The notes under the pieces are model-generated. The model worked only from the letters and a program-made list of their open reading frames with translations. It did not search any database and was not told the DNA's origin. Both the position numbers and the translations under genes were made by a program. Shown piece by piece: positions 10,655 to 32,997 of a DNA stretch of 36,854 bases (position 1 is its first letter; each line of letters opens with the position of its first letter). This DNA is from Acidobacteriota bacterium (GTDB taxonomy: Bacteria; Acidobacteriota; Vicinamibacteria; Vicinamibacterales; JAFNAJ01): positions 1-36,854 of the forward strand of contig JAHDVP010000036.1 of NCBI GenBank assembly GCA_023384575.1, written 5' to 3'.

Positions 10655-10669
10655 GCGTCTGGAGGACCG

Positions 10670-11140
<471 letters not shown>

Positions 11141-11160
11141 GTCGGGAATCCGTCACTCGA

Positions 11161-11181: not shown

Positions 11182-11191
11182 GCTCGAGCCG

Positions 11192-11698
11192 TCACGGGCG
11201 GCCCACCCACGTCTTCACGATCGACTCGAGCGCGCGCGGCGTCCTGAGCGCCCCGGCCACGCGCCAGCGGACTTCTCCCCCGGCCACGCCCACGACATGC
11301 GGGGCGCCCGTCAGCCCGAGCGCCCGCCAGCCATCGCCGCCGACGTCGACGACGAAGCGGAGCGGCTGGAGGTCATCGCCCGCGGCCCGCACCCACTCGC
11401 GCGCGTTCGCGAGGTCGCGCCCGACGACCACGACCGTGCGCGCGCGCAGCGCGTCGGAGTCCCACGCCTTGAGCTGCCGCAGCAGGTGATCGCTCGGCGG
11501 GCTGCCGGGCGAGAGATACACGATCACGTGCGTTCCCGCGCCCACCTCGGCGAGCGACGTCGTCGCCGTCCCGTCGAGCCGCACGAGATCGAAATGCGGC
11601 ACGGGACCGGGCCCGCCCGTCTCGGCGACGACCCCGACCGCACCCGCCACGACGATGGCCGTCACGACAGCCAGCCTACATTTGCGCCCACTGCTCAT
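11192..11698 (-). CDS. Membrane-anchored thioredoxin-fold (TlpA-like) protein with CPPC replaced by SPPS
   Basis: 168 residues. An N-terminal hydrophobic helix (about 8-25) should anchor it or export it. The remainder fits a TlpA/redoxin fold: VPHFDLVRLDG (33-43), a strand HVIVYLSPG (57-65), then SPPS at 66-69 exactly where CPPC is expected, the following helix DHLLRQLKAW, and a cis-proline loop LTGAPHVVGV with Pro133. Both catalytic cysteines are serine (AGC codons, one base from TGC), and the only Cys is in the N-terminal region. It therefore cannot do dithiol chemistry and may bind a partner instead. The ATG at 11698 has GAGG eight bases upstream. It begins 40 bp after the second giant gene on the same strand and probably shares its transcript. 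Fold assignment is by motif only. Confidence 0.72.
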   Translation of the reverse strand: MSSGRKCRLAVVTAIVVAGAVGVVAETGGPGPVPHFDLVRLDGTATTSLAEVGAGTHVIVYLSPGSPPSDHLLRQLKAWDSDALRARTVVVVGRDLANAREWVRAAGDDLQPLRFVVDVGGDGWRALGLTGAPHVVGVAGGEVRWRVAGALRTPRALESIVKTWVGRP

Positions 11699-11738
11699 CG
11701 CACCGTCCTCGGTCAACCAGCCGACCAACACGTGGCGG

Positions 11739-14700
11739 TCAGAAGTTGATGTTGAACACTTCGACATGCATCTCCGGGCTGCCATCCGGCCACACTTCCA
11801 CTTCGTAGCCCGTCCCGTCGTCGATCACCAGGAAGCGCACCCGGGACATGTCGTGCGGCCAGAGGCCCTCGACGACGATCTCGCCCGCGCCGTCGGTCGT
11901 CGTGACGAACCGGCGCTCGCCAAGCTCGCTCTCGATGATGACGAGCACCGTCCGGTCGGCCAGGCGGTCGAAGTTGTCGTCGAAGATGGCAAAGCGCACG
12001 CGCTGGGCCGCGAGGAGTTCCCAGGGCCCGCTCGACCAGCCCGACCCTGGATCGGGACCCGGTTCGTCGCTGTAGGTGACGTAGTTGCCCGAGCGCAGGG
12101 CCACCCGGATGGTTCCGGGCGGCACCCCTCCGATCCGCCACTCCCCGTCCTCGAACACGGCCGCGTCGGTGCGCTGCGGCGTGAGGAAGGAGGGGTGAGG
12201 CTCGCCGAGCCACGACACCTCGAGCGGCCCTGTCAGCGGCGCCCCGCCCTGGAGCGTGACGTGGTTGAACCCGATGCCGCCGAAGTCCGAGAGGTCGATC
12301 GTGACGTGGTGATCGATTGTCGCATCGGCGATCTCGATGCCGACGGCCCCGTTGAGGCCCGTGCAGGTGTCCCACCAGTAGGCGTCGAGGCACGTGAGCG
12401 CCTCGGCCTCGACCGTGACCGTGCCGAGCGGCACGCGCACGGTGAAGGCCCCGCCCTCCTCGGCCTCGGCGAACCACCCGAGCTGTCGCTCGAAGGTCGG
12501 CCCGGAGCGCACGACCACGTTGGCGTACTCGGCCGGCTGGCCGTCGCGACCGCGCACCTGGATGTGCAGCGTGGCGAGCTCCGGCAACTGGATGTCGGCG
12601 CCCGTCACCACGCTGTCGCTCGCGGCGAGGGTCACCTCGATGCTCGCTTCGAGCCCGTCGTTGTCGCTTGCCGTGACGGTGTAGTCGCCCTGCGGAATCC
12701 CCACGAAGACGTAGGTGCCGTCGCTGCGAGTCGTCTGCGGGAACGCCGTCGCGCCGGCGTCGTGCCGCGCAAAGACGTTCGGGAAGACGACGGGGGCCGC
12801 GCTCCCGTACCTCACCCGTCCCGAGAGCACCGAGATGGGCACCGCGATGTCGCCGAAGTCGACGAGTTCGCCCTGCGTGGCCGCCGTGCGCTCGACGTCG
12901 ATGTCGGCCTGGACGAACGGGCGCACGCGCGCCACGATCTGACCGTCGGGGCCCGCGAGCACCCGACGCTCGAAACGGCCGTCGCCATCGGTCGACACGC
13001 TCGTAACGAGGTTCGTGCCGTAGCGCAGGTCGACGTGCATCCCTTCGAGCGGGGTCACGCCGTCGCCGGCGACCACGCGCCCGCGTGCCGTGACGAAGGT
13101 GCTCGGCGGCAGCGTGAGCGTGACCGGCAGCACCGCCCCGATGGACGACACGGGCCCGGTCACGGCCGACACCTGGCCGCTCGTGAGTCCGACGACGTTC
13201 CAGAGCTTCACCCGCGCGCCTTCCACGGGCAGGAAGACGTCGGCGAAGGTGAAGGTGCCGTCCTCGTTCACGTTGCGACCCGCGCCGCTGATGCGCGTCG
13301 TCGTGTTGTCGACGAAGTCGAGGTTGACGACGCCGATGCCGGCCGGCGTCGCGCCGTCGGCGGCGAGCAGCTGTCCCTCGATCGTCGCGCGGTGGACCGG
13401 CACGGCGATCGGCGGCACGACGTACTCGCCGTCGGCCGTCGGCACGATGAGCTGCTCGATGACGGACGACTCGAACGGATAGAACGGCGACCGCACGCGG
13501 ACGATGACGCCCGCGCCGGTGGCCGTGCCGCTCGACGGGTTGTTCCAGAAGTCGGCCGTCGCGTCGAACTGCGTGAAGTGGTACTCGCCGGGAGCGAGGC
13601 CGGCCTGTCCGCATCCCGACCCGCCAACGCAGACCGTCGCGAGCTGGCGCCGATCCACCGCGCGGAGCAGTTCCACGCCCTGCGGGCTCGGCAGCGGCGT
13701 CACCCCATCGGCCTGCACGAGCGTGCCACGCACGGTGATCGTGAACCGCCGCACGTCCACCGCGACATCGACGATGCCGCCGTCACTGGCCGGACCGACG
13801 ACGACAGCGGCGACGTCGAGCAAGTCGCTCGAGCGCTGGTTCGTGCGTCGCACGCGGTAGGCGTAGCTGCCCTCCACGATCTCGGCGAGCGTCACCTGCC
13901 CGGTCGCGTTGGTCACGCTGGTCGTCGACGCCGGCTCCGACCCGTTCGAGAACACGGGGAACACCCCGGCCCCTGACACAGGGAGGCCGCCCTCGGTGAC
14001 GGTGAAGCGCACCGAGGCGACCGCCGGCGTGCGGACATCGAGGGCGAGCGCCTGCCCGTCGGCGGTGATCCGGTGGTCGGCAAACGTCAGCGTCGGCCGG
14101 TTGAACCCATCGCTCAAGGCCTCGGGACGCTGGACCCTCACGTTGACGTTGACGTTGGCCGGCACCGGCTGCGTCGCCGTGTCGGTGGCGTAGCGGCTGT
14201 TCGCGTCGGTGAACGTCTGGTAGTAGAAGCTCGGTGCGCCGGTTCCCTGGAACACCTCCACGCGCACACCCGGCCCGACGAGCGCGCCGGTGGGCCGCCG
14301 CACGGTCCCCGAGATCGACCCGAAGGCCGGGAGCGCGAGCGTCAGCTCCTGGCCCGGCGCCGTGGTCACCGCCTGCGTCGTCTGCAGGATGGCAGGCTGC
14401 AGCGGGTGGAACGCCGCGACGGTGGCCGCCCGGCCCGCCGGGACGTCGGTCACCGTCGCGATCCCGCTCGCGTTGGTGGTCACCACCGGCCGCGAGAAGC
14501 CGGTGCCGGTCACCTGCACGCTCATGCCGCCAATCGGCGTGCCGTTGGCGCGCGTCACGAGCACCGTCATGGCGACGTTGCCGACGTAGCGCAGCTCGAC
14601 GAGGCTCGTCTGGTCGACGGCCACGACGACCGGCTCCGACACCTCGAGGTTGTTGCTCGGGTCGGTGGAAGCCACCGTGAAGCTGCCGAGTCGCGCGTCG

Positions 14701-17700
14701 GTGAAGGTGAACTGGCCCGACGCGTTGGTCGTGGCGAACCGCTGGTACGAAGCCGTCCCATCGCGCAGCCGCACCTGCCGCGACGGCTGCGGCACACCCG
14801 CCGCATCGAGCAGCACGCCCTGCACGGCGCCCGTCGGCTCGACGAGCAGCGCGTCGTCTCGCACTTCACCGGGGGCGAGCGTGACGATCTGCTCGACGAT
14901 CTGTAACGCCGTGCCCTGCGGGTGCGACACCGTGCCTCGCAGCAGCCGATCGCCGGCCACGACGCCACCGATGCGGTAACGCCCGTTCGCGTCGGTCAGC
15001 GTAGCCCCGTTGCTCACCTGCCCTTGGCTGTCGACCACGACAGACGCGCCGGCGACCGGCACGCCCGTGTGCCGGCGCACGACGCCCGTGAGCACGCCGC
15101 CGTCGCTGAAGACCACGGCCTGCGCCGTCGTCGTCTGACCGGGCGCGAAGCTTCCGGTCACAGGCGGAGACACGCGAATCTGGTTGATCGGATGCCGCGC
15201 ATCGAGCGTGAAGTCGGCCACCGGCACCGGCGTACCTGGTACCCCGGTGAAGGTGAAGTTGCCCGACGCATCGGTCTGGAACTCGATCTGGCGCGGATGC
15301 ACCGGCACCGTGCTCCTGAACCGCACCCATGCAAGGCCGACACCCGTCTCGGCGTCGCCCTCGAGCACCTGCCCCGTCACCGCGCCGGTGATGGGCGGCA
15401 GCGGCGCGACGAGGGTCGTACCCGTGGACGGCACGTCGAAGTTGGCGATGGCCGCAATCTCCGAGGCCGAGAGCCCCTCGAGTGCCTCGGGCGGCAACTG
15501 CACGAGCCGGTCGGCCGACGCCGTGGCCGCCGGCACCCCGCCCTGGAGCGAGACGAAGTGCATGAGCGCCACGGTGCTGCCCGCCGGCACCGTCACCGAC
15601 TGCCACGCGTAGGCGAAGCGCGGCCTCAGGAACGGCGAGACGTTCGGGTTGAGCGCCTCGTAGACCGCCGACCCGACGCGCACGCTGCCGCCCTCGCCGT
15701 CGAAGACGAAGCTCACCGACGCCACCTCGTTCGGGTTGACGTACGGGTTGGCCCCGGTGGCGCCGAAAGACACCCAGCGGTCGGGCGTCTCCGATGCGAC
15801 GTCGATGACGTCGTCGCCGCTCGACGTGGTCGACAGGAAGTGCGTGCGCTCGCACTGGAACGAACAGAACTGGAGGACGCCGCCATAGAGGCGCGACTCC
15901 ACGGCGACGTCCACCGTGACGTCTTCGCCGGTCGGGTTCGACAGCAGCTCGAGGTACCGGGCGAAGTAGCCCGTCGCCGGCACGAAGACCTTCCGTGTCA
16001 CGTCGAGCCCGCCCACGCCATCCTGCCTCACGGCAATCTCGCGGCCGGCGTTCTCACGCGTGCCCAGGGTCGCGCCGGTGAAGGTCTGCGGCGCCCCGCC
16101 CTGTGGCGTGAGCGTGAGGCCGAGGCCGCCGTAGCGGAACGTGCGCACGTTGCTCTCGCCGAGGCCCGCCGCCTGCGTGATGGCGTGGCCCGAGTTGTTG
16201 CCGTCGGCAAGCGTCGTCGGCAGCGTGACGGCGTTGTCCTGCAGCAGGACGTCGATCGAGATCACCGCCGGTGCCGGTGGCACGTAGGTCAGCACGCCCG
16301 TCGACTCGCCGAGCAGTTGCTCGGCGGGCTTGCTGGAGGTCACCCGCACCGCCCCGGCCGTGACGCCCGTGACCTCGTAGTTGCCCGCCGCGTCGGTCTG
16401 CCCGAAGCGGAAGCCGCCGAAGATCGGGTCGAGTGCCTGCACCGACACCGTGAGGTGGCCCACGTCACCGCCGACATTCGGGTGGATCACGCGTCCGCGG
16501 ACCGTGCCCTGCGCCACGAAGGCGAGCGCCACCGTCGGATGGTCGCCGTTGACGGCCAGCACGATGCCGGAGGTGGTCGCGCGCCGGCGCCCCGCCCCGT
16601 CGAACGCGTCGACGAAGTAGCTGCCCATCGGCAGGTCGGTCGCCGTGAACGTGCCGTTGGCGAGCGTGCCGTTGACCTGCGCGCCGGTGGTACGGGTGAT
16701 CCGGACGCTGCCGGCCGCCGGCGTCTCGCCGTCCTGATCGAACACCGCGACCGTGATCGACCCGCGCGGCTCGAGGGCAATCGTCACCGTCGAGACCTCG
16801 TCGGCGACGATCGTGCCCGGCGTGCCGGCGCCCGAGAGTCCGGCCGCCGTCGCCGTCACCGTGAAGCTGCCTGCCAGCAACCGGTCGAGCAGGACGCGGC
16901 CCGCCTGGCCGTCGACAATGCCCGTCGTGCCGCTCAGCACGTCGGTGAGTGGCGCGCTCGTGACCTCCACCGTGACGGTCGCGCCGTCGACCGGCTGACC
17001 CCCGGCATCGACGACGGTGGCAAGCAGCGCCCCTTGCGGCCGAAGCGTCACGTCGCGCTCGATGGTCTCGCCGCTCACCGCGAACGCCACGACCGAGGGG
17101 TGCACACCCTGGCCGCGCGTGCCCGGATCGGTCGCGAACATCGTGTAGGTGCCAAGCGGCAGGAACAGGAAGCTGTAGGCCCCGTTGGCGTCGGCCTCGC
17201 GCGTGTAGGCGCACGTCGGCCCGCACCGGGCGGTCACCATCGCCCCAGGCACGGGTGTCGTGCCGTCGGCCCGGACGACAGTGCCGGTGATATTGCCGAA
17301 GGCCGAGAGCGTGATGGTCGCGCTCACCGTCGCCCCGTCGGCCACCACCTGGCCCGACGTCGACCCACCCTGGCCCGTGGCCGGGTCGTTGGCGGTGGCA
17401 GTGAAGGTGCCGGCCAGCACGTCCGCAAAGCGTGCGACGCCTTCGCCGTCGGTCGTCGCCGTGCGCTGCGGCGCGGTGCCGAGCGCGCTCGTCGCCTCGA
17501 AGCTCACGACCGCCCCGGAGACCGGCGCGCCGGCCGCCGCGTTGACGGTGATCTCGACCGTGGCCCGCGCGAGCGTCACGACGTCGGCCACGACCTCTTC
17601 GCCGCTCGCCACCGCCGCCTCGGCGCGGCCGATATCGACGTTCTGGGCCGACGCGATGATCACGTAGCCGCCCGGCGCGACGAGCGGGAAGAGATACCTG

Positions 17701-20700
17701 CCGTCTGCTCCGGTGAACGTCGTGGCAATCGCCACGCTCGGCGCGGCCGCCTCGAAGAGCCGCACCATGACGTCGGCGCCGGCCGGCGTCACGCCGTCGG
17801 CGCGCCGCACGGTGCCGCTCAGACTGCCAACCGGCGCGAGCGTGAGCGTCACGTCAGCGAAGCCGCCGGGTGCACTGAGGTCGACGGTCCTGACGTCGAG
17901 CCGCCCGGAGTCGGTCGCGCGCACCGACACGCTCGCGCCCACGAGGCCCTCGACGACGAACGTCCCGTCTGCCGCGGTCACCGTGGCGGCTGGCGGTCCG
18001 CCGTGGGACACGGTCACCTGCGCGCCGCCAACCGGCACGAACCCGCCCTCGGGCACCGGCGCAACGACGGTACCCGTGAGCGCGCCGCCGATGACGGTCA
18101 CCGTGCTCGTCGCCTTGACGACGCCGCCAATCGACGCGGTGAGCTGCGCGCTGCCGCCCCGCAGTGCCGCGACGGTCGCCGTCGCCGTCGTCTCACCCCC
18201 CGCAACCGTCACGCTCGGGTTCACGGTGGCCGTGGTCGTGGCGCTGCTGGCGAGCGTCACGACCACGCCGCCCGCCGGGGCCGGCGTGTCGAGCGTCACC
18301 GGGACGCCAGCGGTCTCGCCGGCACGCAGGAGCAGCGACGTCGGCAGCGTCGCGGTGTAGTCGAGGGTCACCGTCACCGCCACGGTCACCGAGAACGCGA
18401 GCGCCGTGACCTCGATCGTCGCGGTGCCGTCGCCGACGGCGCTGACGAGGCCGTTGGGCGAGACGGTCACGACGCTGTCGTTGCTCGAGAGGAAACCTGG
18501 CGCGCCCGCAGGCGACGTCGTGCCGTCGTCGTACTGGACGATGACCTGCAGCGGCACGGTCTCGCCCAGGCTCGACAGGGTCAGGCTCGAGGGGCTGACC
18601 GTGATCCCGGTGGGCTCGGGGCTCTCGACGGTGACCGGTACGACCACCGGCGGCAGTCCCGCGCTGGACAGGTTGATCGTCGCCGACCCGAAGCCGGTGG
18701 CCGTCACGCGGCCGGTGTGGTCGACGGTGGCGATGCTGGGGTTGGTCGTCGCAAACTGCACCACGCCCGGAAACGGCCCCAGGGTGTCGTCGGAGAAGCG
18801 TGCCTGTACCGTGATGCGGTCCTGGTGGCCGAGGCCGGACAGGGTCAGCGACGTCGGCGTCGGCTCCACGCCGATCACCGTCGAGAAGTCCACCGCGACC
18901 GATACCGCGACGGGCGTCACCCCGGAGGCGGTCACGCCGACCTGGATGGTCGCGGTCCCGTTCTGTCCGGGAATGACGAGGCCACCAGCGGTCGCGCTGG
19001 CGACCAACGGGGCCGACGACGAGAACGTGAGACCGCTCGCGAGCACCTGCTGGCTTCCGTCGCTGAAGTGTCCCGTCACCGTGAGCAACTGCGAAGGGTG
19101 CGTGCGATTCAACGTGAACGAGAGCGGGCTCACGCTGACGGAGGAGAGCGACGGCGGGGCGGGCACCACGACGGTGACCGGCGTGCTCGACAGCCCGCTG
19201 TCGTCGGTGACGACGATGCGGAGCGTGTCGCCGCCAGCGGCCTCGATCTGGGCCGTGAACGCGCCCGAACCGCTCGCGCCCGCGATGGCGCCCGCCTGCG
19301 TCGAGAGATTGGTGAGCGTCACCACGACACCCGGGCCCACGGCGCCGGCCGCGCCGACGACCGGCACGATGCCGTTCATCGGCGTGCCCGGCGCGATCAA
19401 CGCCACGTTGGCCGGAGACGGGGGCAGGGCTGCGGGCGGCGGCACGAACAGCTCGAAGGGCACGGCCAGCGTCGCGACGTTGCCCGACGTGTCCGTGGCG
19501 GTGATGGTGACGACGTGCAGGCCCGGCGCCAGGCCGGCCGTGTCGAGCGTGAAGCCGCCCGACCCGAGGCCGCGAGGTGCGGTCTCGACATCGAGGCGGT
19601 ACTCGATCGACCCGACACCGATGTTGTCGGTCGCCTCCGTGGCAAAGGCGATGAGCGCACCGTGGCGGAAGCGGTTGCCGGCCGGGGCCACGAGCGCGAT
19701 CTGCGGCGGCGTGATATCGGCGGTCACCTCGAAGCTGGTCGTCGACTCGCCCACGTTACCGGCGCCGTCGGTGGCCACCGCGCGCAGCTGGTACGAGCCG
19801 GCCGCGAGCGCAGTCGTCGACACGACGAAACGATACGGCTCGACGAGCCCGACGCCGACCGGCTGCGGCGAGCCCGCCAGGAACAGCTCGACGCGATCCA
19901 CGCGGCCATCGTCGGCGGCCTCGACCAGGACCGGCAGGAGCTGCCCGCGCGGCACGCGGGCGTCGGCCACGATGGTGACGACCGGCGGGGCGATGTCACC
20001 CACGATCTGCATCGAGAGCGTCGCCGTGCCCATGTTGCCGGAGGCGTCGAACGCCCGAGCGGACAGCACGTGCGTACTCCCCGGCAGGAGCGCGCGGGTC
20101 TCGACCAGGAATCGCACGGCGGAGGTCGAGGCGCGCGTGTCGATCAGCTCGCCGTCGAGCAGCAGGTCCAGGCGGGTGACGCCCACGTTGTCGGTCGCGC
20201 CGACGAGCAGGGGCACGGTCTGGCCCTGGCTGATGGAGCCGGCCGAGAACGGGGCCTCCACGGCGATGGCCACCTCGGGGGCGAGGCCGTCTGGCGACAC
20301 CGGCGACGGCTCAGTGGTGAAGCGGGCCACCACGCCCGAGGCGAGCGCGACCCCGCTCTCGTTGAAGATCGAGGGGTTCACTACGATCGAGTACGTCGTG
20401 CCGAACTGCAGCACGTCGTCGGACCGGAAGATGGCGGCCGTGGCCTCGAAGAGCTCGGCGAAGTCGAGCGAGCCGGGCACGACGTTGCCGTCGGGATCGA
20501 TCACGTTGAACGACGCCCCGGGATACCCGGTGGTGATCGTCGGCAGGATCATCCGGTGCGAGAAGATGGCGGTGATGGCGGGATCGATCGACACGTCGGT
20601 CGTGTTGTGCGCCGGCACCACGGTCACCGTCGGCCGACCGTCCGGATTCAGCCGCTCGGATGGGAGCGTGCCGATGGCACAGCCGATCCGCGATCGACCG

Positions 20701-22067
20701 ATGAACTCCACGTTGAGCGTGATGTTCTCGGTGGCCGCGCCCACACAACTCGTGATCGGCCCGGTGAGGAGCGGCATCACGCGGTAGGTCTGCACCGTGG
20801 TCTCGCCCCGCAGGATGTCGCCCACCGCCCGTGTCTGCGGCCCCTCCATGACGTCGCCCGTGAGTGGGTCGATCAGCTCGGCGCCGCCGCCCACGTCGAT
20901 GAGCAGCGAGGTATAGAGCGCGTCGAGCGTACTGTCGGTGTTGCGAATGGTCACCTCGAGGTCGTACGGCTCGTTGGCGACGACGTAGTCGGGGTGGGAC
21001 ACCTTCACGTCGAGCTTCGGTGGGCCCTTCACCTCCAGGTCCGTCGAGGCCCGCCCTGAGAACGGCAGCGGCTCGGGCAGGAAGGCGCCCGTGACTTTGC
21101 CGCCGAAGTGCACGGTCACCGTATGGGTGCCCTTGCGGTCGCCGCGCACGATGAACTCGCTGGTGTTCTCGGTCGCTGGCTCGAGGTCCGGCACCGACAA
21201 CGTGCCGCCGGCTGGCGCGACCGCGGAGAGCGCGCCTTCGGGCAGTTCCACCCGCGCCGTCAGGTCGGTCAGGGTGAAGAGCGGCGACAGGTTCATCAGG
21301 AGCAGGTTGACGCGGAAGAACTCCTTGAGCGTCTTGATGCGGCCCTCGATCAGGATCACGCCCGGGATCGACGGCATGCCGGGCGCAGGCGGCGCGACCT
21401 CGAAGGGGACGATCTCGATGTTCGGGGCCCTGCCCCCGCCGCCGCCACCGCCGCCACCGCAGGGGATGAGGATCCGGTTCGCGGTGCTCGTGAGGCCCTG
21501 ACCGGGCGAGGCGCACCCGACCGACACCCCCTCGCCAACGGCCACGGGCTGCTGCACGTGACGGACGACCGGGACGGGCACCTGCACCTGCCGCCCCCCG
21601 ACGACGAGCGCCACCACGAAGCGGGAGACGTTGTAATTGCTCGGATCCTCGACGTCGATCGTGCCGTCGGCGACGAGCTGTCGGATCTCCTGCGTCGTGA
21701 GCGGCTGCGTCGTGACGGTGGCGCGTACGATTTCGGTGAGCGAGATCTGCGCGACGCTCAGGCCCTCGACAGAAGCGGTGCGGCCGTCCCGATCGGTCGC
21801 CACGAGCGCGAGCCGGTTCTCGGCATTGGGCTTGAGCGGCACCCGAATGCCGAACTGCGCCTGCCCGGCCGGCAGACGCTGGCTCGCGGCCTGCGACCCG
21901 CCGGAGATCGCGACCGTCGTCGGCGTGGTCTGGGCGGCCGCCGTCGGCACGAGGGCGAGCGTCATCGCCGCCACGATGCCGAGGACCCTGCGCCCGCGCG
22001 GTCGAGAGGTGATCGCCACGGCTGTTGCCCCGGTTCTCGTCGGTCGGCTGGAGTGCCGGTGGGTCAT
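11739..22067 (-). CDS. Giant secreted multidomain protein with Ig-like and carboxypeptidase-regulatory-like repeats
   Basis: 3,442 residues. An export signal ends near PTAAAQ (residue 46). A nine-glycine run (204-212) follows Cys203. Residues 215-475 are beta-rich and unassigned. An SbsA-type Ig domain (about 478-586) is followed by three Ig-like domains with DNVG/DASGN motifs (about 596-875), three BIG_2-like domains (about 972-1240), and from about 1327 onward some eighteen repeats resembling CarboxypepD_reg (pattern G-x-V-x-x-x-D-G-x-P). A different beta domain at about 1945-2215, with VFVPATGYFARYLEL, breaks the series. No LPXTG, PEP-CTERM or type IX sorting signal is seen at the C-terminus, which ends VEVFNINF. 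The ATG at 22067 overlaps the stop of the upstream giant gene. The open frame above 22067 runs inside that gene and is not coding. A structural or adhesive extracellular role is inferred. Confidence 0.85.
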   Translation of the reverse strand: MTHRHSSRPTRTGATAVAITSRPRGRRVLGIVAAMTLALVPTAAAQTTPTTVAISGGSQAASQRLPAGQAQFGIRVPLKPNAENRLALVATDRDGRTASVEGLSVAQISLTEIVRATVTTQPLTTQEIRQLVADGTIDVEDPSNYNVSRFVVALVVGGRQVQVPVPVVRHVQQPVAVGEGVSVGCASPGQGLTSTANRILIPCGGGGGGGGGRAPNIEIVPFEVAPPAPGMPSIPGVILIEGRIKTLKEFFRVNLLLMNLSPLFTLTDLTARVELPEGALSAVAPAGGTLSVPDLEPATENTSEFIVRGDRKGTHTVTVHFGGKVTGAFLPEPLPFSGRASTDLEVKGPPKLDVKVSHPDYVVANEPYDLEVTIRNTDSTLDALYTSLLIDVGGGAELIDPLTGDVMEGPQTRAVGDILRGETTVQTYRVMPLLTGPITSCVGAATENITLNVEFIGRSRIGCAIGTLPSERLNPDGRPTVTVVPAHNTTDVSIDPAITAIFSHRMILPTITTGYPGASFNVIDPDGNVVPGSLDFAELFEATAAIFRSDDVLQFGTTYSIVVNPSIFNESGVALASGVVARFTTEPSPVSPDGLAPEVAIAVEAPFSAGSISQGQTVPLLVGATDNVGVTRLDLLLDGELIDTRASTSAVRFLVETRALLPGSTHVLSARAFDASGNMGTATLSMQIVGDIAPPVVTIVADARVPRGQLLPVLVEAADDGRVDRVELFLAGSPQPVGVGLVEPYRFVVSTTALAAGSYQLRAVATDGAGNVGESTTSFEVTADITPPQIALVAPAGNRFRHGALIAFATEATDNIGVGSIEYRLDVETAPRGLGSGGFTLDTAGLAPGLHVVTITATDTSGNVATLAVPFELFVPPPAALPPSPANVALIAPGTPMNGIVPVVGAAGAVGPGVVVTLTNLSTQAGAIAGASGSGAFTAQIEAAGGDTLRIVVTDDSGLSSTPVTVVVPAPPSLSSVSVSPLSFTLNRTHPSQLLTVTGHFSDGSQQVLASGLTFSSSAPLVASATAGGLVIPGQNGTATIQVGVTASGVTPVAVSVAVDFSTVIGVEPTPTSLTLSGLGHQDRITVQARFSDDTLGPFPGVVQFATTNPSIATVDHTGRVTATGFGSATINLSSAGLPPVVVPVTVESPEPTGITVSPSSLTLSSLGETVPLQVIVQYDDGTTSPAGAPGFLSSNDSVVTVSPNGLVSAVGDGTATIEVTALAFSVTVAVTVTLDYTATLPTSLLLRAGETAGVPVTLDTPAPAGGVVVTLASSATTTATVNPSVTVAGGETTATATVAALRGGSAQLTASIGGVVKATSTVTVIGGALTGTVVAPVPEGGFVPVGGAQVTVSHGGPPAATVTAADGTFVVEGLVGASVSVRATDSGRLDVRTVDLSAPGGFADVTLTLAPVGSLSGTVRRADGVTPAGADVMVRLFEAAAPSVAIATTFTGADGRYLFPLVAPGGYVIIASAQNVDIGRAEAAVASGEEVVADVVTLARATVEITVNAAAGAPVSGAVVSFEATSALGTAPQRTATTDGEGVARFADVLAGTFTATANDPATGQGGSTSGQVVADGATVSATITLSAFGNITGTVVRADGTTPVPGAMVTARCGPTCAYTREADANGAYSFLFLPLGTYTMFATDPGTRGQGVHPSVVAFAVSGETIERDVTLRPQGALLATVVDAGGQPVDGATVTVEVTSAPLTDVLSGTTGIVDGQAGRVLLDRLLAGSFTVTATAAGLSGAGTPGTIVADEVSTVTIALEPRGSITVAVFDQDGETPAAGSVRITRTTGAQVNGTLANGTFTATDLPMGSYFVDAFDGAGRRRATTSGIVLAVNGDHPTVALAFVAQGTVRGRVIHPNVGGDVGHLTVSVQALDPIFGGFRFGQTDAAGNYEVTGVTAGAVRVTSSKPAEQLLGESTGVLTYVPPAPAVISIDVLLQDNAVTLPTTLADGNNSGHAITQAAGLGESNVRTFRYGGLGLTLTPQGGAPQTFTGATLGTRENAGREIAVRQDGVGGLDVTRKVFVPATGYFARYLELLSNPTGEDVTVDVAVESRLYGGVLQFCSFQCERTHFLSTTSSGDDVIDVASETPDRWVSFGATGANPYVNPNEVASVSFVFDGEGGSVRVGSAVYEALNPNVSPFLRPRFAYAWQSVTVPAGSTVALMHFVSLQGGVPAATASADRLVQLPPEALEGLSASEIAAIANFDVPSTGTTLVAPLPPITGAVTGQVLEGDAETGVGLAWVRFRSTVPVHPRQIEFQTDASGNFTFTGVPGTPVPVADFTLDARHPINQIRVSPPVTGSFAPGQTTTAQAVVFSDGGVLTGVVRRHTGVPVAGASVVVDSQGQVSNGATLTDANGRYRIGGVVAGDRLLRGTVSHPQGTALQIVEQIVTLAPGEVRDDALLVEPTGAVQGVLLDAAGVPQPSRQVRLRDGTASYQRFATTNASGQFTFTDARLGSFTVASTDPSNNLEVSEPVVVAVDQTSLVELRYVGNVAMTVLVTRANGTPIGGMSVQVTGTGFSRPVVTTNASGIATVTDVPAGRAATVAAFHPLQPAILQTTQAVTTAPGQELTLALPAFGSISGTVRRPTGALVGPGVRVEVFQGTGAPSFYYQTFTDANSRYATDTATQPVPANVNVNVRVQRPEALSDGFNRPTLTFADHRITADGQALALDVRTPAVASVRFTVTEGGLPVSGAGVFPVFSNGSEPASTTSVTNATGQVTLAEIVEGSYAYRVRRTNQRSSDLLDVAAVVVGPASDGGIVDVAVDVRRFTITVRGTLVQADGVTPLPSPQGVELLRAVDRRQLATVCVGGSGCGQAGLAPGEYHFTQFDATADFWNNPSSGTATGAGVIVRVRSPFYPFESSVIEQLIVPTADGEYVVPPIAVPVHRATIEGQLLAADGATPAGIGVVNLDFVDNTTTRISGAGRNVNEDGTFTFADVFLPVEGARVKLWNVVGLTSGQVSAVTGPVSSIGAVLPVTLTLPPSTFVTARGRVVAGDGVTPLEGMHVDLRYGTNLVTSVSTDGDGRFERRVLAGPDGQIVARVRPFVQADIDVERTAATQGELVDFGDIAVPISVLSGRVRYGSAAPVVFPNVFARHDAGATAFPQTTRSDGTYVFVGIPQGDYTVTASDNDGLEASIEVTLAASDSVVTGADIQLPELATLHIQVRGRDGQPAEYANVVVRSGPTFERQLGWFAEAEEGGAFTVRVPLGTVTVEAEALTCLDAYWWDTCTGLNGAVGIEIADATIDHHVTIDLSDFGGIGFNHVTLQGGAPLTGPLEVSWLGEPHPSFLTPQRTDAAVFEDGEWRIGGVPPGTIRVALRSGNYVTYSDEPGPDPGSGWSSGPWELLAAQRVRFAIFDDNFDRLADRTVLVIIESELGERRFVTTTDGAGEIVVEGLWPHDMSRVRFLVIDDGTGYEVEVWPDGSPEMHVEVFNINF
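11760..18089 (-). repeat. Tandem array of about eighteen carboxypeptidase-regulatory-like domains
   Basis: Protein-level repeats inside the 3,442-residue gene. Each unit of roughly 80-100 residues opens with a strand such as GSLSGTVRRADG, GNITGTVVRADG, GVLTGVVRRHTG, GSISGTVRRPTG or ATIEGQLLAADG and continues with a DANGRY/DASGNF-type turn. Units diverge at the DNA level, so the array is old rather than freshly amplified. The series is interrupted at about 15423-16235 by the unrelated beta domain. The count is by eye. Confidence 0.7.
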
Positions 22068-25000
22068 GGCGTCACCCTGATGGCGATGGAGAGGTCCGAT
22101 GCGACGCTGCTCGTGACCTCGATGGCGTCGACGTTCATGTAGTGGCCGAGCCGGTCGAGCGCCGCGGCCACGCGGTCGATGTCCTCGTCGGGCGGATCCT
22201 CCTCCGACTGTGTGAGGTAGTGCGCGAGCCGGACGAGTGTGAGCTCGAGCCCGACGAGGGTCTCCTGGACGGGTCTCGCGCTCACGGCCGCGATCGGCGC
22301 GCGCCGGAAGCGCGCCTCCTCCACGAGCGTGTAGAGGCGGGCGAGCGACTGCGCGGCGGCGACCTCCTCGCCGGCGCGCAGGAGCGCCACGAAGGTCGAG
22401 AACTCGGCCGTGAGCCCACCGACGATCGTGTTGGCGTGCTCGACGGCCGGCAGGAAGTCGGGCAGCGTGACGTTCAACTGGAACGTGCCGAACGCGTCGG
22501 TCGTCGTGCCGATCCCCGTGCCGGGGATCTCGATGGGAAGGCCGACGAGCGGCGTCCCCGTCACGCTGTCGAGCACGCGACCGCGAATCGCGGTGGCGAA
22601 GCCGATCTGCGCCCGGTACTCGGCCGCGCTCTCCGGGCTCGCCGCGTAGAACACGTCCACCGGCGAGGAGATGGCCATGTCGGCCTCGTCCTCGACGCCG
22701 GTCTGGCCGCACTGCCCCTCCCGAAGTACCTGCCCGGTGACGACCACCGTGAGGCGGTTCAGCCCCTGCTCGAGCGCGACGTCCAGCTCGAAGTCGTGAC
22801 CCGACAACGGGACGTCGTGCCGGTGCTGGTTGGCCGTGAGCCCCACGCTGCCGAGCGAGGGATCGGACACGAAGCCGCGAACCGCGATCGTGGGCGTCGT
22901 CACCACCACGCGGTGGCCCGGCTCGAGGAGCTGCGCGATCGGGCACCGAGCGTCCGGCTCCTCGGTCGGCGGCGGCGGCACACCGGGACCCGGCGTCGGG
23001 ACGACCGCGGGGATCGTGGCCGTCGCCTGCACCGGGATCACGGGTCCGGTCGGCGCGATCGGCGGCGGCGGCACCGGCGGGATCGGCGAGGGGCGCAATC
23101 GCAGCGGTGGCGGCGTTCCCCCGGGCGGCGGCGGCTCCGGCTCGAAGGTGAGTGTGACGACGTTGTGCTGGAAGCGGTTGAGCCCGAGGATGCCGCTCGA
23201 CACCTCGCCCTGGTGGCGAATGGTGTACTCGATGGCGTTCGACCGTGCGGGGTCGAGCAGGTCCGGGATGACCACCACGCCGTCGGCGTCGGCAATCGCG
23301 GTCTTGCCGCGTTCGGGCAGCACCACCATGGCGCCCGACAACGGGTTGCCTCCGGTGTCCAGTACCCGAGCGGACAGCCCGAAGGCCACTTCGCGGAACG
23401 GACTCTCGGCATCGAAGAAGGCGAGCCCCTGGAGATCGCCGCGCAGCTTCACGTCGGAGGGACGCGGCAGCCCCCGCATTACCGTGAAGAGCTTCCGCTC
23501 GAGCGGCGAGATGTTGTTGCCGGTGAACAGCGGCGAGACCTTCGTCTGCGGCAGCATCACGATGGTACCGGCCGTGAGGTCCGACACATAGAGGTTGCCG
23601 TAGACGTCGGCCGCCACGCCGCTCGTGTTCTCGAAGATGCTCGTGCCGGGCTGGAACAGCGGCGCCGCGGTGTAGGTCCAGATGCCCCGGTGTTGCGGCG
23701 GCACCTTGATGACGTTGTCCTGCTGGTTGAAGAAGACGGTCGTGTCGTGGCGCACGACCAGCCCGCTGTTCTCGAAATTGAACAGCGGGCTCTGGGCCCA
23801 GACCTGCGAGACGTTGCGCTCCGGATACTCACCGGGCGCGAACGCCTCGGGCCGCTTGAGATTGGTGATGCGCTGGTTGAGCCCGTCGGCGACGAACAGC
23901 GTCTCGCCGAACATGCCCGGGCCGAACGCCATCGCCTGCACCGACGTGGGATTGGCCCGCATCAGCAGCTGGCTGTAGTAGTTCATGGTGCCGGCGAGCG
24001 AGCGCGCGCCCGTGTAGGGCGCGTAGCGGAAGATGCGGCCCCCGAACTGCGCGTTGCCCGACACGTTGTTCGTGTAGACGTACCCCAGGCTGTCCACCGC
24101 CAGGCCGGCCTGCACGCCCTCTGGCACGACCTTGAATCCCGAGCGCGCGAAGACCCGCATGGTCGGCTTGAGCGAGAACATCAGCCCCTCGAACTGCGGG
24201 GCCGGCAACGAGAGGTATGCCTGTCGGTCGAGCGGGTCGATGGCGAGCGCCGCGACGACGGCCGGCGCCGTGCGCATCGAGACGGTGACGATAGCGACCT
24301 CGCTCGGGTCGCTCACCTGGTAGGCCAGGCCCCTGAGGATCGTCGCTGCCGGGTCGAGCACCGTCTTGAGCGTGTCGAACGACACCGACATCGTGATGGA
24401 GGTCGAGCCGGCCGATGCGAAGCCCCCCCCGGGGAGCGACAGCCCCGAGGGTACGAACGGTGCAAGCAGTGGGGCGATCGCCGTGTCGAACGTGGTCGGA
24501 GCGTACTCGATGGGCCCGCCCACGCGGCGCCGGGCGATCACGTAGTACCCGTTGTTCCCGAGCGGCGGATCCTCGTCGACGAAACGGAGGACCTTCCGAT
24601 CGCCCGGGAAGCGCTGGAGCGCGATACGCTCGTGGCCGCGCGAGGCGTTCTGCCGCCACAGCTCGTACGACCACACGGTGTTGGCGTCGTGCTGGTCGCC
24701 CCGGTCGTTGTCGCTCCGCTGGACCGACAGGAGCACGCCGCGAATCTTCTCGCCGCTCGTGGGGTCGGTGACCTGCTCGGCGCGGAGGATGACCGGGGGG
24801 CGCGGGCGGAGCGACTGGATGATGAGGTCGGCCTGCACCTGGAAGATGGCGCGGACAACAGCGCCCTGCTGCTTCGAGAGCACGTCTTCGGCGTAGCCGC
24901 GGGCCGCGTCGGCCACGTGGCGGATCAGGTTGTACTTGCGGGCCTCGGCCTGCGCCTCGGCCCAGGCGCCCCACGTGGCGTCGACGTTCTCGCGGAAGGC

Positions 25001-27892
25001 CCGCTGACGGGCCTGCGTGAGCGACTGGCTCTCGAGCACGCCGTCGGCCAGCTCGCGCAGGGCGGCGCTGCCGGGCACCAGCTCGCCGTGCAGGGCCGCA
25101 CGCGCGCGGTCGGCCAGGTGCCGCGGCACGCCCTCCCGCTCGAAGAACCGGAAGAACTGCGCGTCGGCGGCCACCACGTCGCCCACGCGATCGCGCAGCA
25201 GCACGCCCATCAGCTTGACGACCTCCGCGCAGCTCGGCTGCGGCGGGTACAGGTCGGTCCTGAACTGATCGGCCGCCGACGGTTCGGGTGGCGGCGGCCC
25301 GCTCGGCGTTCCGCCGGGCAGCGCCCTGATCGTCTGGGTGCAGAGCTCCGAGTACACGCCAGGCAGATTCGCCTTCACCTGGTCGCTCTTGGCCTCGAGC
25401 GTCAGCTGCCAGACGTTGCCCCACGCGTGGGACGGCTCGCGGGCCGGCGGGGCGTCGCCCTGCGCCAGTGGCGTGGTCCCGACCCACGCCGGCGCCCGTC
25501 CGCCGACGTTCGTCGCGAACGCGCGCTCGATGTCGCGGCTCACCCTCGACCGGCTCCCGGAGGAGCCCGCCCACGCCAGCACGCGGTCCGTCGGAGAGAA
25601 CTCCCCTGCGGCCCGCTGGAACGGCTCCACGTACTGGCGGTGCAGGAACGTGAGGAACGTGGCGACGAGCAGCTGCTGCTGCAGTTCGTTGAGCAGCGTG
25701 TCGACGCGGACGCTGGGCGGGGCGGCCGAGGCGGTCCTGCCCTGATTGAAGAGCACCATCATCAGCGCCGCACCGGGGCGGGACGGATCGGCCCAGACCG
25801 CGTCCACCTCCGCCTGGAGCGCGTTCAGCAGCTCGCCCATCGACGGGACGTACTCCGGTCCGGGGTACCGGAACGACAGCAGCAGCATCTTCAGCGTCTC
25901 GCCGAGGGTGACCGCGTCGCCGGCGATCATCCGCTGCGCCGTGGCCTCGACGCCGCTGTGGCGGAAGCTCCAGTAGCCGTCGCCGGCCACCTGCGGGTTC
26001 AGCTGGTGGCCCCCGGCGTCGAGCACGCCCACCTCCGGCCCGCCGACCGCGATGATGGTGTCCTCCACCATCTTCATCACGACTTCCATCTTCTGGGGGC
26101 CGGAGAGGATCTCGGTGGCGCCGCGACCGAGCGCCGCCGCGAGGCGAGGCGGCACCGGCGGGCTGTTGGGCGGTGGGGGCGGTGGCGGCACGTCGACTTC
26201 CGCGAGCTCGATCTCGCCGAGGTCTTCGGCGTCCTCCAACGTGAGCGACACCCGCAGGCTCGTCTCGAGGTAGCCCTCGGCCTGGATCACGACACGCCGC
26301 AGGTCCACCGGCACGCCGAGCAGCGTGAACGTGCCGTCGGCGGCCGTCGTCGTGCACAGCGAGGTGCCCGGCACGCAGACCAGCGCGTTGGCGAGGGCCT
26401 GTCCGCCGGCGTTGCGCGCCCGGCCGGTGACTCGCGTCGTGCCGCTCGTCACGTGGAACGCGTTGAGGAGCGCCGCCTCCTGGTTACCGGTCGTGACCAC
26501 CACCACGCGCGGACCCACGCCCGCATCGCGGGCCACGCGCACGCGCGCGCTGAGCGAGGTCGGCCCCTGGACGGTGATGGCGCCCACCTCGATGCCCGGA
26601 CCGAAGGTGACGAGGCTCTCCTGCGGCTCGAAGGCCGTCGCGTAGCCTGTGACGACCACGTCGAGCTCCTGGCCCTGCTCGGCGCTGAGCGGCGCGATCG
26701 ACGCGACGAAGGCCCGAGAGGCCGGTGGCCGCGGTGTGCCCTCGCCGAGGACGCCCGTGATGATGGCGGTCGGCTGGAACGTCGGTGAGAGAGGCGGGTC
26801 CACCGTGACGCGCAGCGGCGTGCCGTCGCCGGTGGGATCGATTGAGGCCACGACGACGGTCGCTTCGGTGGTGGCCTCGTTGCCGGCATCGTCCACCGCG
26901 CGCGCCGAGAAGGTCAGCGGCGTGTTCTCCGTCGCGTCGGGCGGCACGGCGTGGTTGAACTGGAATTCGAACGGAGGGGCGCTCGCGGAACCGAGCGGCG
27001 TCCCCTCGTAGTCGAGTTCGAGCAGCGCCAGTGCGCCGTTGTCGGTGGCCCGCACGACGATCGGGACGAGCCCGCCCGGCACCACGGCCGCCGGCGCCTC
27101 GATCGCCACGACAGGCGGCGTCGTGTCGGGCACGTCGACGACGAGCACACGCGTCGCCGTGCCCACGTTGCCGGCACGGTCGCGCACGCGCGCGAACATC
27201 GTGCGCCCCGTGTCGCGCGCCGCGTCCGGCGGCACCGTGACGTCGAAGGCGAACGGGCCCGACGTGCGCTCGCCGATCCTGGTCGTGAACTCGAAGAACT
27301 CCACGAGCTCGGGCCCCGACAGGTCCGCGACCTCCACCGTGAACTGGACCGTCTCGTCGGGCCGGGCCCTGACCTGACCACCGATCGTCAACCGCGGCGC
27401 CGTCTTGTCGACATTGAGCGTCACGCTCGCCGTGGCCGTCGCGCCGGCGCTGCTCTGCACGGTGCGCTCGATCACCTGGCCAGCCCCCTCAGTCGTCACC
27501 TCGATGGCCTCAGGGCAGCTCGTGGCGTGCGTGCACGCGAAAGAGACCGTCACGCTGGTCCGATGCCAGCCGTTCGCGTTCGCCGCCGGCGTGACCGTGG
27601 CGACAATCGTCGGCGTCTCGACGGGATACGTCTTGCCCAGGTTGCGCCGGACGATGGTGAGGTCGACGGTGTTGATGACGCCATCGCCGTTCACGTCGGC
27701 GTTCGGGATGTAGCCGGGCTGACCGACTCGCTGGCCCAGGGCGCCCTGCACGATGGCGACATCGGCCTGGTTGACGATGCCGTCGCGGTTGACGTCAGGG
27801 TTGGGCACGGTCTGCCCGCGTGCCGGCGAGGGCGCCGAGGCCACGAACGCGAAGAGCAGCAGCGCGGCGAGTCGATGGGTGAAGTGCCTCAT
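22064..27892 (-). CDS. Giant secreted protein with N-terminal dockerin-like domain, Ig-like domains and NHL-like propeller
   Basis: 1,942 residues. A signal peptide ends near residue 26. Two dockerin-type calcium loops follow, DVNRDGIVNQADVAIV (33-48) and DVNGDGVINTVDLTIV (66-81). Ig-like domains span about 95-350, an IPT/TIG-like region about 390-485, and a carboxypeptidase-regulatory-like domain about 486-565. A proline linker (569-582) leads to a helical region without a recognised family (582-1035), then a fibronectin-like part (1036-1130), an NHL-like propeller (about 1255-1500), a second carboxypeptidase-regulatory-like domain (1504-1585), a proline-rich stalk (1585-1645), further beta domains and a helical end (1815-1942). 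The ATG at 27892 starts the signal peptide. Its TGA overlaps the ATG of the next giant gene (22064-22067). It is probably exported and calcium-binding; partner and purpose are unknown. Confidence 0.85.
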   Translation of the reverse strand: MRHFTHRLAALLLFAFVASAPSPARGQTVPNPDVNRDGIVNQADVAIVQGALGQRVGQPGYIPNADVNGDGVINTVDLTIVRRNLGKTYPVETPTIVATVTPAANANGWHRTSVTVSFACTHATSCPEAIEVTTEGAGQVIERTVQSSAGATATASVTLNVDKTAPRLTIGGQVRARPDETVQFTVEVADLSGPELVEFFEFTTRIGERTSGPFAFDVTVPPDAARDTGRTMFARVRDRAGNVGTATRVLVVDVPDTTPPVVAIEAPAAVVPGGLVPIVVRATDNGALALLELDYEGTPLGSASAPPFEFQFNHAVPPDATENTPLTFSARAVDDAGNEATTEATVVVASIDPTGDGTPLRVTVDPPLSPTFQPTAIITGVLGEGTPRPPASRAFVASIAPLSAEQGQELDVVVTGYATAFEPQESLVTFGPGIEVGAITVQGPTSLSARVRVARDAGVGPRVVVVTTGNQEAALLNAFHVTSGTTRVTGRARNAGGQALANALVCVPGTSLCTTTAADGTFTLLGVPVDLRRVVIQAEGYLETSLRVSLTLEDAEDLGEIELAEVDVPPPPPPPNSPPVPPRLAAALGRGATEILSGPQKMEVVMKMVEDTIIAVGGPEVGVLDAGGHQLNPQVAGDGYWSFRHSGVEATAQRMIAGDAVTLGETLKMLLLSFRYPGPEYVPSMGELLNALQAEVDAVWADPSRPGAALMMVLFNQGRTASAAPPSVRVDTLLNELQQQLLVATFLTFLHRQYVEPFQRAAGEFSPTDRVLAWAGSSGSRSRVSRDIERAFATNVGGRAPAWVGTTPLAQGDAPPAREPSHAWGNVWQLTLEAKSDQVKANLPGVYSELCTQTIRALPGGTPSGPPPPEPSAADQFRTDLYPPQPSCAEVVKLMGVLLRDRVGDVVAADAQFFRFFEREGVPRHLADRARAALHGELVPGSAALRELADGVLESQSLTQARQRAFRENVDATWGAWAEAQAEARKYNLIRHVADAARGYAEDVLSKQQGAVVRAIFQVQADLIIQSLRPRPPVILRAEQVTDPTSGEKIRGVLLSVQRSDNDRGDQHDANTVWSYELWRQNASRGHERIALQRFPGDRKVLRFVDEDPPLGNNGYYVIARRRVGGPIEYAPTTFDTAIAPLLAPFVPSGLSLPGGGFASAGSTSITMSVSFDTLKTVLDPAATILRGLAYQVSDPSEVAIVTVSMRTAPAVVAALAIDPLDRQAYLSLPAPQFEGLMFSLKPTMRVFARSGFKVVPEGVQAGLAVDSLGYVYTNNVSGNAQFGGRIFRYAPYTGARSLAGTMNYYSQLLMRANPTSVQAMAFGPGMFGETLFVADGLNQRITNLKRPEAFAPGEYPERNVSQVWAQSPLFNFENSGLVVRHDTTVFFNQQDNVIKVPPQHRGIWTYTAAPLFQPGTSIFENTSGVAADVYGNLYVSDLTAGTIVMLPQTKVSPLFTGNNISPLERKLFTVMRGLPRPSDVKLRGDLQGLAFFDAESPFREVAFGLSARVLDTGGNPLSGAMVVLPERGKTAIADADGVVVIPDLLDPARSNAIEYTIRHQGEVSSGILGLNRFQHNVVTLTFEPEPPPPGGTPPPLRLRPSPIPPVPPPPIAPTGPVIPVQATATIPAVVPTPGPGVPPPPTEEPDARCPIAQLLEPGHRVVVTTPTIAVRGFVSDPSLGSVGLTANQHRHDVPLSGHDFELDVALEQGLNRLTVVVTGQVLREGQCGQTGVEDEADMAISSPVDVFYAASPESAAEYRAQIGFATAIRGRVLDSVTGTPLVGLPIEIPGTGIGTTTDAFGTFQLNVTLPDFLPAVEHANTIVGGLTAEFSTFVALLRAGEEVAAAQSLARLYTLVEEARFRRAPIAAVSARPVQETLVGLELTLVRLAHYLTQSEEDPPDEDIDRVAAALDRLGHYMNVDAIEVTSSVASDLSIAIRVTP
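27632..27796 (-). other. Dockerin-like duplicated calcium-loop domain
   Basis: Encodes residues 33-87 of the 1,942-residue protein. Each half has the D-x-N-x-D-G-x-I/V-N-x-x-D pattern of an F-hand calcium loop followed by a helix, and the two halves are 33 residues apart. Type I dockerins normally sit at the C-terminus and bind a cohesin; here the domain is N-terminal and I recognise no cohesin in the window. Confidence 0.8.
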
Positions 27893-28132
27893 GGCGTCAA
27901 TCCGTCGTGGACACGTGCGAGGAGCGAGAGGACGGTTCAGTTGAGCAAAGCGCAATCGCATCGCGAAGGGGGCCACGGCCGCCCCCGCGTCGCGGGACCC
28001 GAAGACTCGCGCGCGGGCGTCCGCCCTGCGCGCGGAACACACGACGCCCGCGGCCAATGACGACCATCGTGACGAGGCATGCGAGGACCGGCCGACGCCT
28101 GCGAGGGTGGCGTCATCCCGTCGTGCTGGTCT

Positions 28133-28885
28133 CTATCGAAGTCGGCGGAATCGCCCGTGTGCGCTCAGGCCGATTCCCAACGCCACGAGCACGAGCACAC
28201 CCGGTTCGGGCACCGGCGCCGGATCGGGGTCCGTGCCGCCGCCACCAGGCGCCGCAATCGACAGTGAAAGACTCGCGGGCACGAAGTCGAAGTCGACGAG
28301 CGGGAAGAAGCCCCACTCGTCGAGCTCCTCCAGCTCCTGCAGGCCAAAGCCACTCACGCCGAACAGTCCGTTCGCGCCAGTCGCCGGGTCGTAGCTGAAG
28401 AGCGCCGAGAACAATCGACCGGACCCGGTCGCGCGCGGGGTGACGATCGGAAGGTTGGTCGTGCTGTCGAAGAGCGCATTGAGGAAGCCGGCAAACGACC
28501 ACGTGCCACCGCCGGTGTCCAGATCGAGGAAGTCGGCAAACGGAGGCAGCGGATCGAGGCAGTCGGCGCCGGCCGCGCACGCCGCCTCTGCCGCCGTCTG
28601 CGCCGCCGCGGCTTCGGCCGTGAGCCAACTCCCGAGTTCGGCGCTGACGAACGTGAACGGGCCGCTCCACTCGAAGAGCAGGTCGAACATGACGAGGTTC
28701 GCGGGGTCGTTGTCGGTCAACTCGCCGTCGACGTGCAGGGTGACGAACCCCGACACGGTCGTGTCTGCGCTGAGCGACAGGATGGCCGCGGCCTCACCAC
28801 GGGCGGGCCCCAGCAGGCCGCAGGCCGCGACGAGCATGGCCCCGACAAGGCGGTGCGATGAACGCAAGGACGGATGGATGGTCAT
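28133..28885 (-). CDS. PEP-CTERM sorting-domain protein
   Basis: 250 residues. A signal peptide (about 16-33, ending GEAAA) and a C-terminal PEP-CTERM tripartite signal (VPEPG at about 225, a hydrophobic helix, then RFRRLR) mark it for export and exosortase-dependent processing. The body between them is acidic, with a cluster LQELEELDEWGFFPLVDFDF near 182-201 and a likely disulfide pair (two Cys near 102 and 108), and has no family I can name. Proteins of this kind are usually surface or biofilm-matrix components. No exosortase gene is in the window. It starts 18 bp after the HTH gene on the same strand; the 240-bp gap downstream to the giant genes shows no clear terminator, so read-through into them is possible. 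Confidence 0.85.
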   Translation of the reverse strand: MTIHPSLRSSHRLVGAMLVAACGLLGPARGEAAAILSLSADTTVSGFVTLHVDGELTDNDPANLVMFDLLFEWSGPFTFVSAELGSWLTAEAAAAQTAAEAACAAGADCLDPLPPFADFLDLDTGGGTWSFAGFLNALFDSTTNLPIVTPRATGSGRLFSALFSYDPATGANGLFGVSGFGLQELEELDEWGFFPLVDFDFVPASLSLSIAAPGGGGTDPDPAPVPEPGVLVLVALGIGLSAHGRFRRLR

Positions 28886-29548: not shown

Positions 29549-29705
29549 TTGTCTTCCGTTCTTTGACCGAATCTGACCGGCGGGCACCCCACGCACACGG
29601 TCGAGGTGGCCTCACCAGAACAAGCGGAAGACGAAAGAGAATGGGGCCAGCCCAGGAGCCAGGCCGGCAGACGAACCGCCCCGGGGTGCCGGCTGTGGGG
29701 GCGGG

Positions 29706-32866: not shown

Positions 32867-32879
32867 GCCGTGGCTCAAC

Positions 32880-32885
32880 AGTATA
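32880..32885 (-). promoter_or_regulatory. Candidate -10 element (TATACT) of the kinase-sigma unit
   Basis: TATACT on the minus strand ends 13 bases before the kinase ATG. A weak TTGCGC lies 19 bp further upstream. The mRNA leader would be very short and no good Shine-Dalgarno is visible. Confidence 0.3.
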
Positions 32886-32997
32886 TGCGGGCGGTGTGAC
32901 CGACGCGCAACGGGAGCCTGGCGCCAGCGGGCGCGCTCACCCACTCGGCCGCGGTCACTGCCCGTGGGCGGGTCGGGCGAAGCGGCGGTGGCCGGCG

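What the first reader, a model, noticed from the sequence alone, without database searches (positions are those of the whole stretch)
11192..27892. Three-gene extracellular unit of two giant proteins plus an inactive thioredoxin-fold protein
Two secreted proteins of 1,942 and 3,442 residues are joined by ATGA and followed 40 bp later by a TlpA-like protein that cannot do redox chemistry. The arrangement suggests fixed stoichiometry and joint function, for example a surface fibre with an accessory folding or anchoring factor. Giant Ig/carboxypeptidase-regulatory proteins are known individually in Acidobacteriota; I know of no description of this trio. Neither giant has a recognisable sorting signal at its C-terminus, so how they stay attached is open.
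Basis: partly seen in the sequence, partly recalled or inferred. Interest (0 to 1): 0.65.

Follow-up and report, generated by a model that had tools for sequence, protein, structure and literature searches.

The report
Giant surface-protein pair with folding helper
Two giant secreted proteins and a small thioredoxin-shaped helper are encoded together, not by accident: matching sets recur in soil and sediment bacteria of several phyla, usually behind a gene for an exosortase-sorted surface protein, and the copy seen here is a recombinant of two versions of that set.

Summary
On the minus strand, giant A (1,942 aa) and giant B (3,442 aa) overlap by ATGA, and a 168-aa thioredoxin-fold protein without CxxC starts 40 bp after B. 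The trio is part of a recurrent cassette, often PEP-CTERM protein – A – (PpiC isomerase) – B – Trx-like protein. It occurs in Vicinamibacteria and in Desulfuromonadales; B–Trx occurs in another Acidobacteriota class, and A–isomerase–B without Trx in Geobacter argillaceus. All 22 family Trx genes examined lie next to a B gene on its strand (20 directly, 2 about 1.5 kb away). The window's cassette is a hybrid: A and residues 1 to about 1240 of B belong to a 'type II' lineage that lacks Trx; the rest of B and the Trx belong to 'type I'. Trx tracks B's CarboxypepD-repeat tail (18 of 19 loci with the full tail, 1 of 14 without). CxxC is missing in half the family while the fold is kept, so a binding or assembly role is likelier than redox. 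Best reading (mechanism inferred): an ECF-sigma-linked, exosortase-associated surface fibre or matrix pair with a dedicated assembly factor for B's tail. Secretion route, surface location and binding are untested. I found no published description.

The parts
22064..27892 (-). Giant A, 1,942 aa: signal peptide, type I dockerin, Ig domains, CarboxypepD_reg domains, C-terminal half specific to type II A proteins
   Evidence: homologues in G018, G139, G147 and G558, G560
27638..27796 (-). Type I dockerin domain of giant A (aa 33-85)
   Evidence: Pfam PF00404 E 1e-10; also in G139 A, E 2e-7
11739..22067 (-). Giant B, 3,442 aa
   Evidence: B family by N-domain profile
18348..22067 (-). B head, aa 1 to about 1240, type II; contains the family-defining N-domain (aa 90-476), predicted as Ig-like beta sandwiches
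   Evidence: up to about 70% identity to G018/G139 B per window; AlphaFold pLDDT 82.7, Ig-like matches
11739..18350 (-). B tail, aa about 1240-3442, type I: CarboxypepD_reg repeat array plus conserved stretches without a Pfam family
   Evidence: about 50% to G056:C8 B per window as far as aa about 2600, sharp switch near aa 1220-1250; Pfam
22064..22067 (-). ATGA overlap of A stop and B start
11192..11698 (-). Thioredoxin-fold protein, 168 aa, CxxC replaced by SPGSPPS, cis-Pro region kept (TGAPHVVG)
28133..28885 (-). PEP-CTERM protein, 250 aa, directly upstream of A (putative exosortase-sorted anchor or matrix partner; cohesin-like only by eye)
   Evidence: TIGR02595 16.2 bits, cut-off 16; PF07589 E 0.0014, just under its cut-off; upstream of A in 11/19 loci
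28904..29596 (-). HTH (homeodomain-like) regulator
   Evidence: PF13565 E 5e-17; similar gene in the same place in G046
29706..30503 (-). ECF sigma factor (TIGR02999/PF07638); true start probably downstream of 30503
   Evidence: homologues near A in G018, G046, G056:C8, G000:C9 and upstream of A in G139 (by sequence)
30299..32944 (-). Ser/Thr protein kinase with TPR repeats
   Evidence: PF00069 E 7e-45; homologue in G018, 53% over 849 aa

Best explanation
An ECF-sigma/Ser-Thr-kinase-linked surface-matrix cassette. A and B are exported by Sec and probably act together as a long multi-Ig surface fibre or matrix scaffold, tied to the PEP-CTERM protein encoded just upstream. In the window and its closest type II relatives, a dockerin at A's N-terminus may hold that protein. 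The Trx-like protein is a periplasmic binding or assembly factor for the CarboxypepD-repeat tail of B; it keeps the thioredoxin fold and cis-Pro region but in this copy not the redox pair. SHOWN: gene order, homology, B's hybrid make-up, the tail-Trx association, presence or absence of CxxC, PEP-CTERM adjacency. INFERRED: co-assembly, surface location, the anchoring link, chaperone role, regulation. UNKNOWN: how 2,000-6,000-aa proteins cross the outer membrane.
For: Same-strand A-B-Trx in G000:C9, G000:C1, G029, G056:C4, G056:C8, G026, G046, G101 and in Desulfuromonadales G545, G547; B-Trx in another Acidobacteriota class, G416. All 22 Trx family genes examined sit by a B gene on the same strand. 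Trx in 18/19 loci with the full B tail, 1/14 without. Window B is type II to about aa 1240 and type I after it. PEP-CTERM upstream of A in 11/19 loci against roughly 1% of genes expected; own exosortase. PpiC isomerase between A and B in G056:C8, G543, G545, G101:C147 and before B in G001:C220. CxxC in 11 of 22, 8 changes on the tree. Cysteines of window A (8) and B (12) can be read as neighbouring pairs, as for disulfides.
Against: No expression, localisation or interaction data. The PEP-CTERM proteins upstream are not all homologous to one another, and 8 of 19 loci lack one. Cohesin was not detected in the window's PEP-CTERM protein. Geobacter argillaceus has the tail but no Trx. No outer-membrane export signal was recognised. 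Related loci are not independent, so the Fisher p (3e-7) overstates significance.
Confidence: 0.55

Rival explanations
1. The Trx-like protein is, or was, a disulfide oxidase/isomerase for the giants; copies without CxxC are decaying or use another oxidant.
For: Half of the family keeps CxxC, and G001:C81 has a CxxC copy and a CxxC-less copy in tandem; giants have paired cysteines.
Against: CxxC-less copies stay open, mostly keep the cis-Pro region and a C-terminal motif, and many sit beside B proteins with more cysteines (25-28 in G029, G056:C8, G046, G545) than most CxxC copies do (6-24).
Confidence: 0.2
2. Polymorphic-toxin or contact-dependent weapon: B carries an effector and the small gene is its immunity protein.
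For: Giant secreted protein followed by a small gene; a survey of such systems discusses Acidobacteria (PMC3482391, found, not read).
Against: Many B C-termini are alike between phyla (LTxxE...NFxxP endings) rather than variable, and no toxin domain was found; the small protein is a signal-peptide-bearing thioredoxin fold.
Confidence: 0.05
3. Two separately useful adhesins that merely share an operon; no physical complex.
For: Type I and type II A proteins are not detectably homologous in their distinctive halves (hhalign Prob 17), and G027 has B-Trx without A.
Against: Fixed order persists across phyla and short overlaps recur within Acidobacteriota; type II A and B heads travel together in W, G018, G139, G147, G558, G560.
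Confidence: 0.2

Closest known systems
PEP-CTERM/exosortase (EpsH) sorting system (PMC1569441)
   Same: C-terminal PEP motif, TM helix, basic tail in the upstream protein; exosortase in the genome
   Different: [quoted passage not shown] here one precedes a giant pair, and the giants lack the motif
Serial giant extracellular proteins Giant1-5 of Apilactobacillus kunkeei (PMC12863079)
   Same: Consecutive genes for 3,000-8,000-aa surface proteins (abstract)
   Different: Gram-positive host (own knowledge); no PEP-CTERM, PpiC or Trx partner mentioned in the part of the abstract seen; sequence homology not tested here
TlpA/ResA-like periplasmic thioredoxins
   Same: Thioredoxin fold, exported, cis-Pro region
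   Different: CxxC absent in this copy and in half of the family; always encoded beside giant B in the loci examined
PpiC/SurA-type periplasmic folding factors
   Same: The isomerase gene between A and B in some related cassettes matches PpiC-type PPIase and SurA N-terminal models
   Different: Absent from the window's cassette

Membership tests
Giant A-giant B-Trx cassette family (defined here) | Same-strand order A, B, Trx with no intervening gene | tested here: met
Giant A-giant B-Trx cassette family (defined here) | B N-domain (A2 profile) | tested here: met
   window hit in two pieces, 206 and 169 bits; the window is one of the profile's rows, independent blastp to G056:C8 B gives 26% over 410 aa, E 1e-20
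Giant A-giant B-Trx cassette family (defined here) | Type I giant A | tested here: not met
   window A matches type I A proteins only in the dockerin/Ig region; hhalign Prob 17 for the distinctive half; it is a type II A
Active thioredoxin/TlpA oxidoreductase | Thioredoxin fold | tested here: met
   family profile to PDB 2m72, E 2e-6; no structure was predicted
Active thioredoxin/TlpA oxidoreductase | CxxC redox motif | tested here: not met
   SPGSPPS at that place
PEP-CTERM protein (28133-28885) | PEP-CTERM model | tested here: met
   TIGR02595 16.2 bits against cut-off 16; PF07589 19.1 against 20.7; borderline
PEP-CTERM protein (28133-28885) | Exosortase in the same genome | tested here: met
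   PF09721, 194 bits, C64
Cohesin (for the PEP-CTERM protein) | Cohesin domain | tested here: inconclusive
   no Pfam, NCBIfam or PDB sequence match; single-sequence fold failed, pLDDT 34

The most novel reading that the evidence does not exclude
A hitherto undescribed envelope assembly system shared between phyla: a pair of giant Ig/CarboxypepD proteins tied to exosortase sorting, with a redox-dead thioredoxin reused as a dedicated chaperone for the repeat tail of one giant, and with heads and tails of the giants exchanged by recombination.
Probability: 0.3. Interest if true: 0.75.

Novelty: new variant of a known kind. Interest (0 to 1): 0.6.

Why it matters
It turns a single-genome curiosity into a conserved cassette with a cultured host (Geobacter argillaceus ATCC BAA-1139 carries A–isomerase–B). 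That makes three questions testable: what PEP-CTERM proteins partner with, how Gram-negative cells assemble proteins of 2,000-6,000 residues, and what a thioredoxin fold does after losing its cysteines.

Tried and rejected
Cohesin in the PEP-CTERM protein: no sequence support, fold failed. RHS/toxin reading of B: no such domain. B N-domain structure search: only generic Ig-like matches (transglutaminase, complement; Z about 11 over about 100 residues), no functional clue; the C-terminal part of that model was barely tested. Trx as catalyst of B's disulfides: cysteine counts do not follow CxxC. Homology of type II A with type I A beyond dockerin/Ig domains: not found. Promoter/terminator scan: no promoter-like site in 10600-28500 and terminator-like sites at chance level, so operon limits rest on spacing. 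Papers: no description of this cassette among the results of eight full-text searches; subscription journals are mostly not held.

Full report
OBSERVATION. Pfam finds in A a type I dockerin (E 1e-10), Ig and CarboxypepD_reg domains, and in B Ig domains and a long CarboxypepD_reg array. The small protein has no Pfam or NCBIfam hit, but a profile of its family reaches solved thioredoxin-like proteins (2m72, E 2e-6).

THE TRIO IS A RECURRENT UNIT. In related genomes same-strand A–B–Trx occurs at G000:C9 and G000:C1 (the window's own genome), G029:C13, G056:C4, G056:C8, G026:C5, G046:C1 and G101, and cut by contig ends in G001 and G028. In the class-wide search (193 genomes) the Trx profile gives 19 hits at 80 bits or more, then a gap to 36 bits. 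All 22 family members examined lie next to a B gene on the same strand: 20 directly, two (G060, G101:C415) about 1.5 kb away (for G001:C701 only the last part of B is on the contig). One of them, a distant member with CxxC, follows a B gene in another Acidobacteriota class (G416).

BEYOND ACIDOBACTERIOTA. A genome-wide scan with the B N-domain found 33 loci, including Geobacter argillaceus ATCC BAA-1139 (67% identity), Desulfuromonadales, Nitrospirae, Binatia and Myxococcaceae records (many are MAGs, where binning errors are possible). G545 (Desulfuromonadaceae) has PEP-CTERM – A 4,503 aa – PpiC – B 5,657 aa – Trx. G. argillaceus has PEP-CTERM – A 3,840 – PpiC – B 5,900, without Trx. G547 has A (in two frames) – B – Trx.

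TWO TYPES, AND A HYBRID. Type I is A and B of mostly about 4,000-5,900 aa with Trx. Type II is a shorter A and B (mostly about 1,900-2,500 and 2,500-3,200 aa) without Trx: G018, G139, G147, G558, G560, Thiodictyon L132, Myxococcaceae L135. Window B switches sharply: aa 1 to about 1240 match type II (up to about 70% per window); after that the match is to type I (about 50% to G056:C8 as far as aa 2600, then 34-38% to about 3200), with type I nearly silent before and type II silent after. Over the loci with B, Trx accompanies the full type I tail (18/19) and hardly ever its absence or weak form (1/14); Fisher p 3e-7, uncorrected for relatedness, with contig-truncated Trx-less loci left out. So Trx goes with B's tail, not with A. 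Whether the hybrid arose by recombination or is an ancestral form lost elsewhere was not tested.

THE TRX-LIKE PROTEIN. CxxC is present in 11 of 22 members and absent in 11; the tree needs about 8 changes (bootstrap range 5-9, poorly resolved, direction not determined). The CxxC-less copies mostly keep the cis-Pro region and a C-terminal motif. I infer selection for the fold and binding rather than redox.

UPSTREAM GENES. Directly before A lies a PEP-CTERM protein (28133-28885); further up an HTH gene, an ECF sigma factor (TIGR02999, 217 bits) and a Ser/Thr kinase with TPRs. A PEP-CTERM-like ORF ends near A's start in 11 of 19 loci (two of the 11, G046 and L132, have variant motifs judged by eye), against a median of 8 such genes per genome in the original survey (PMC1569441; about 1% of genes is my estimate). 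Other cassettes have CHAT-TPR proteins in place of the kinase (G000:C1, G026). The genome has one exosortase. A PEP-CTERM gene has been tied to floc formation (PMC9850573) and an exosortase to biofilm formation (PMC12188702; titles and abstracts), which fits a matrix role.

MECHANISM (inferred). Sec export, folding with PpiC in some cassettes and the Trx-like protein where B has the CarboxypepD tail, and a surface or matrix fibre tied to the PEP-CTERM protein; in type II possibly through A's dockerin. The cohesin partner is a guess by eye and found no support in sequence searches.

VERDICT. Real, conserved and, as far as the searched literature goes, undescribed; new variant of a known kind (giant surface-protein operon linked to exosortase sorting).

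Noticed in passing
L038 (G018:C1:1478591-1481584 +) and L039 (G018:C1:4825463-4828645 -): In the single-contig genome G018 the type II giant A is split: its N-terminal half lies at 1.48 Mb on + and its C-terminal half, still followed by B, at 4.83 Mb on -. An inversion with a breakpoint inside the gene (or a misassembly) would explain it.
   Followed up: partly
L058:11555-12566: G001 has two Trx-like genes in tandem after B, one with CGSC and one with SPAS in place of CxxC.
   Followed up: no
L044/L062 (G000:C1:46042-61274): B of the third cassette in the window's genome reads in two frames (3,086 and 2,054 aa), a frameshift or sequencing error; it also contains a run of unknown residues.
   Followed up: no
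L071, L157:11008-12372, L147:10889-12427: A glycine-rich secreted protein (447-512 aa; no Pfam family where scanned) follows B in G060, G551 and Geobacter argillaceus; absent from the window.
   Followed up: no
window:10670-11140: Convergent + strand ORF downstream of the Trx gene looks by eye like an EVE-domain protein; it marks the end of the cassette.
   Followed up: no
L090-L095 (G053, G064, G090): Another B clade without Trx is followed, not preceded, by a second giant gene.
   Followed up: no
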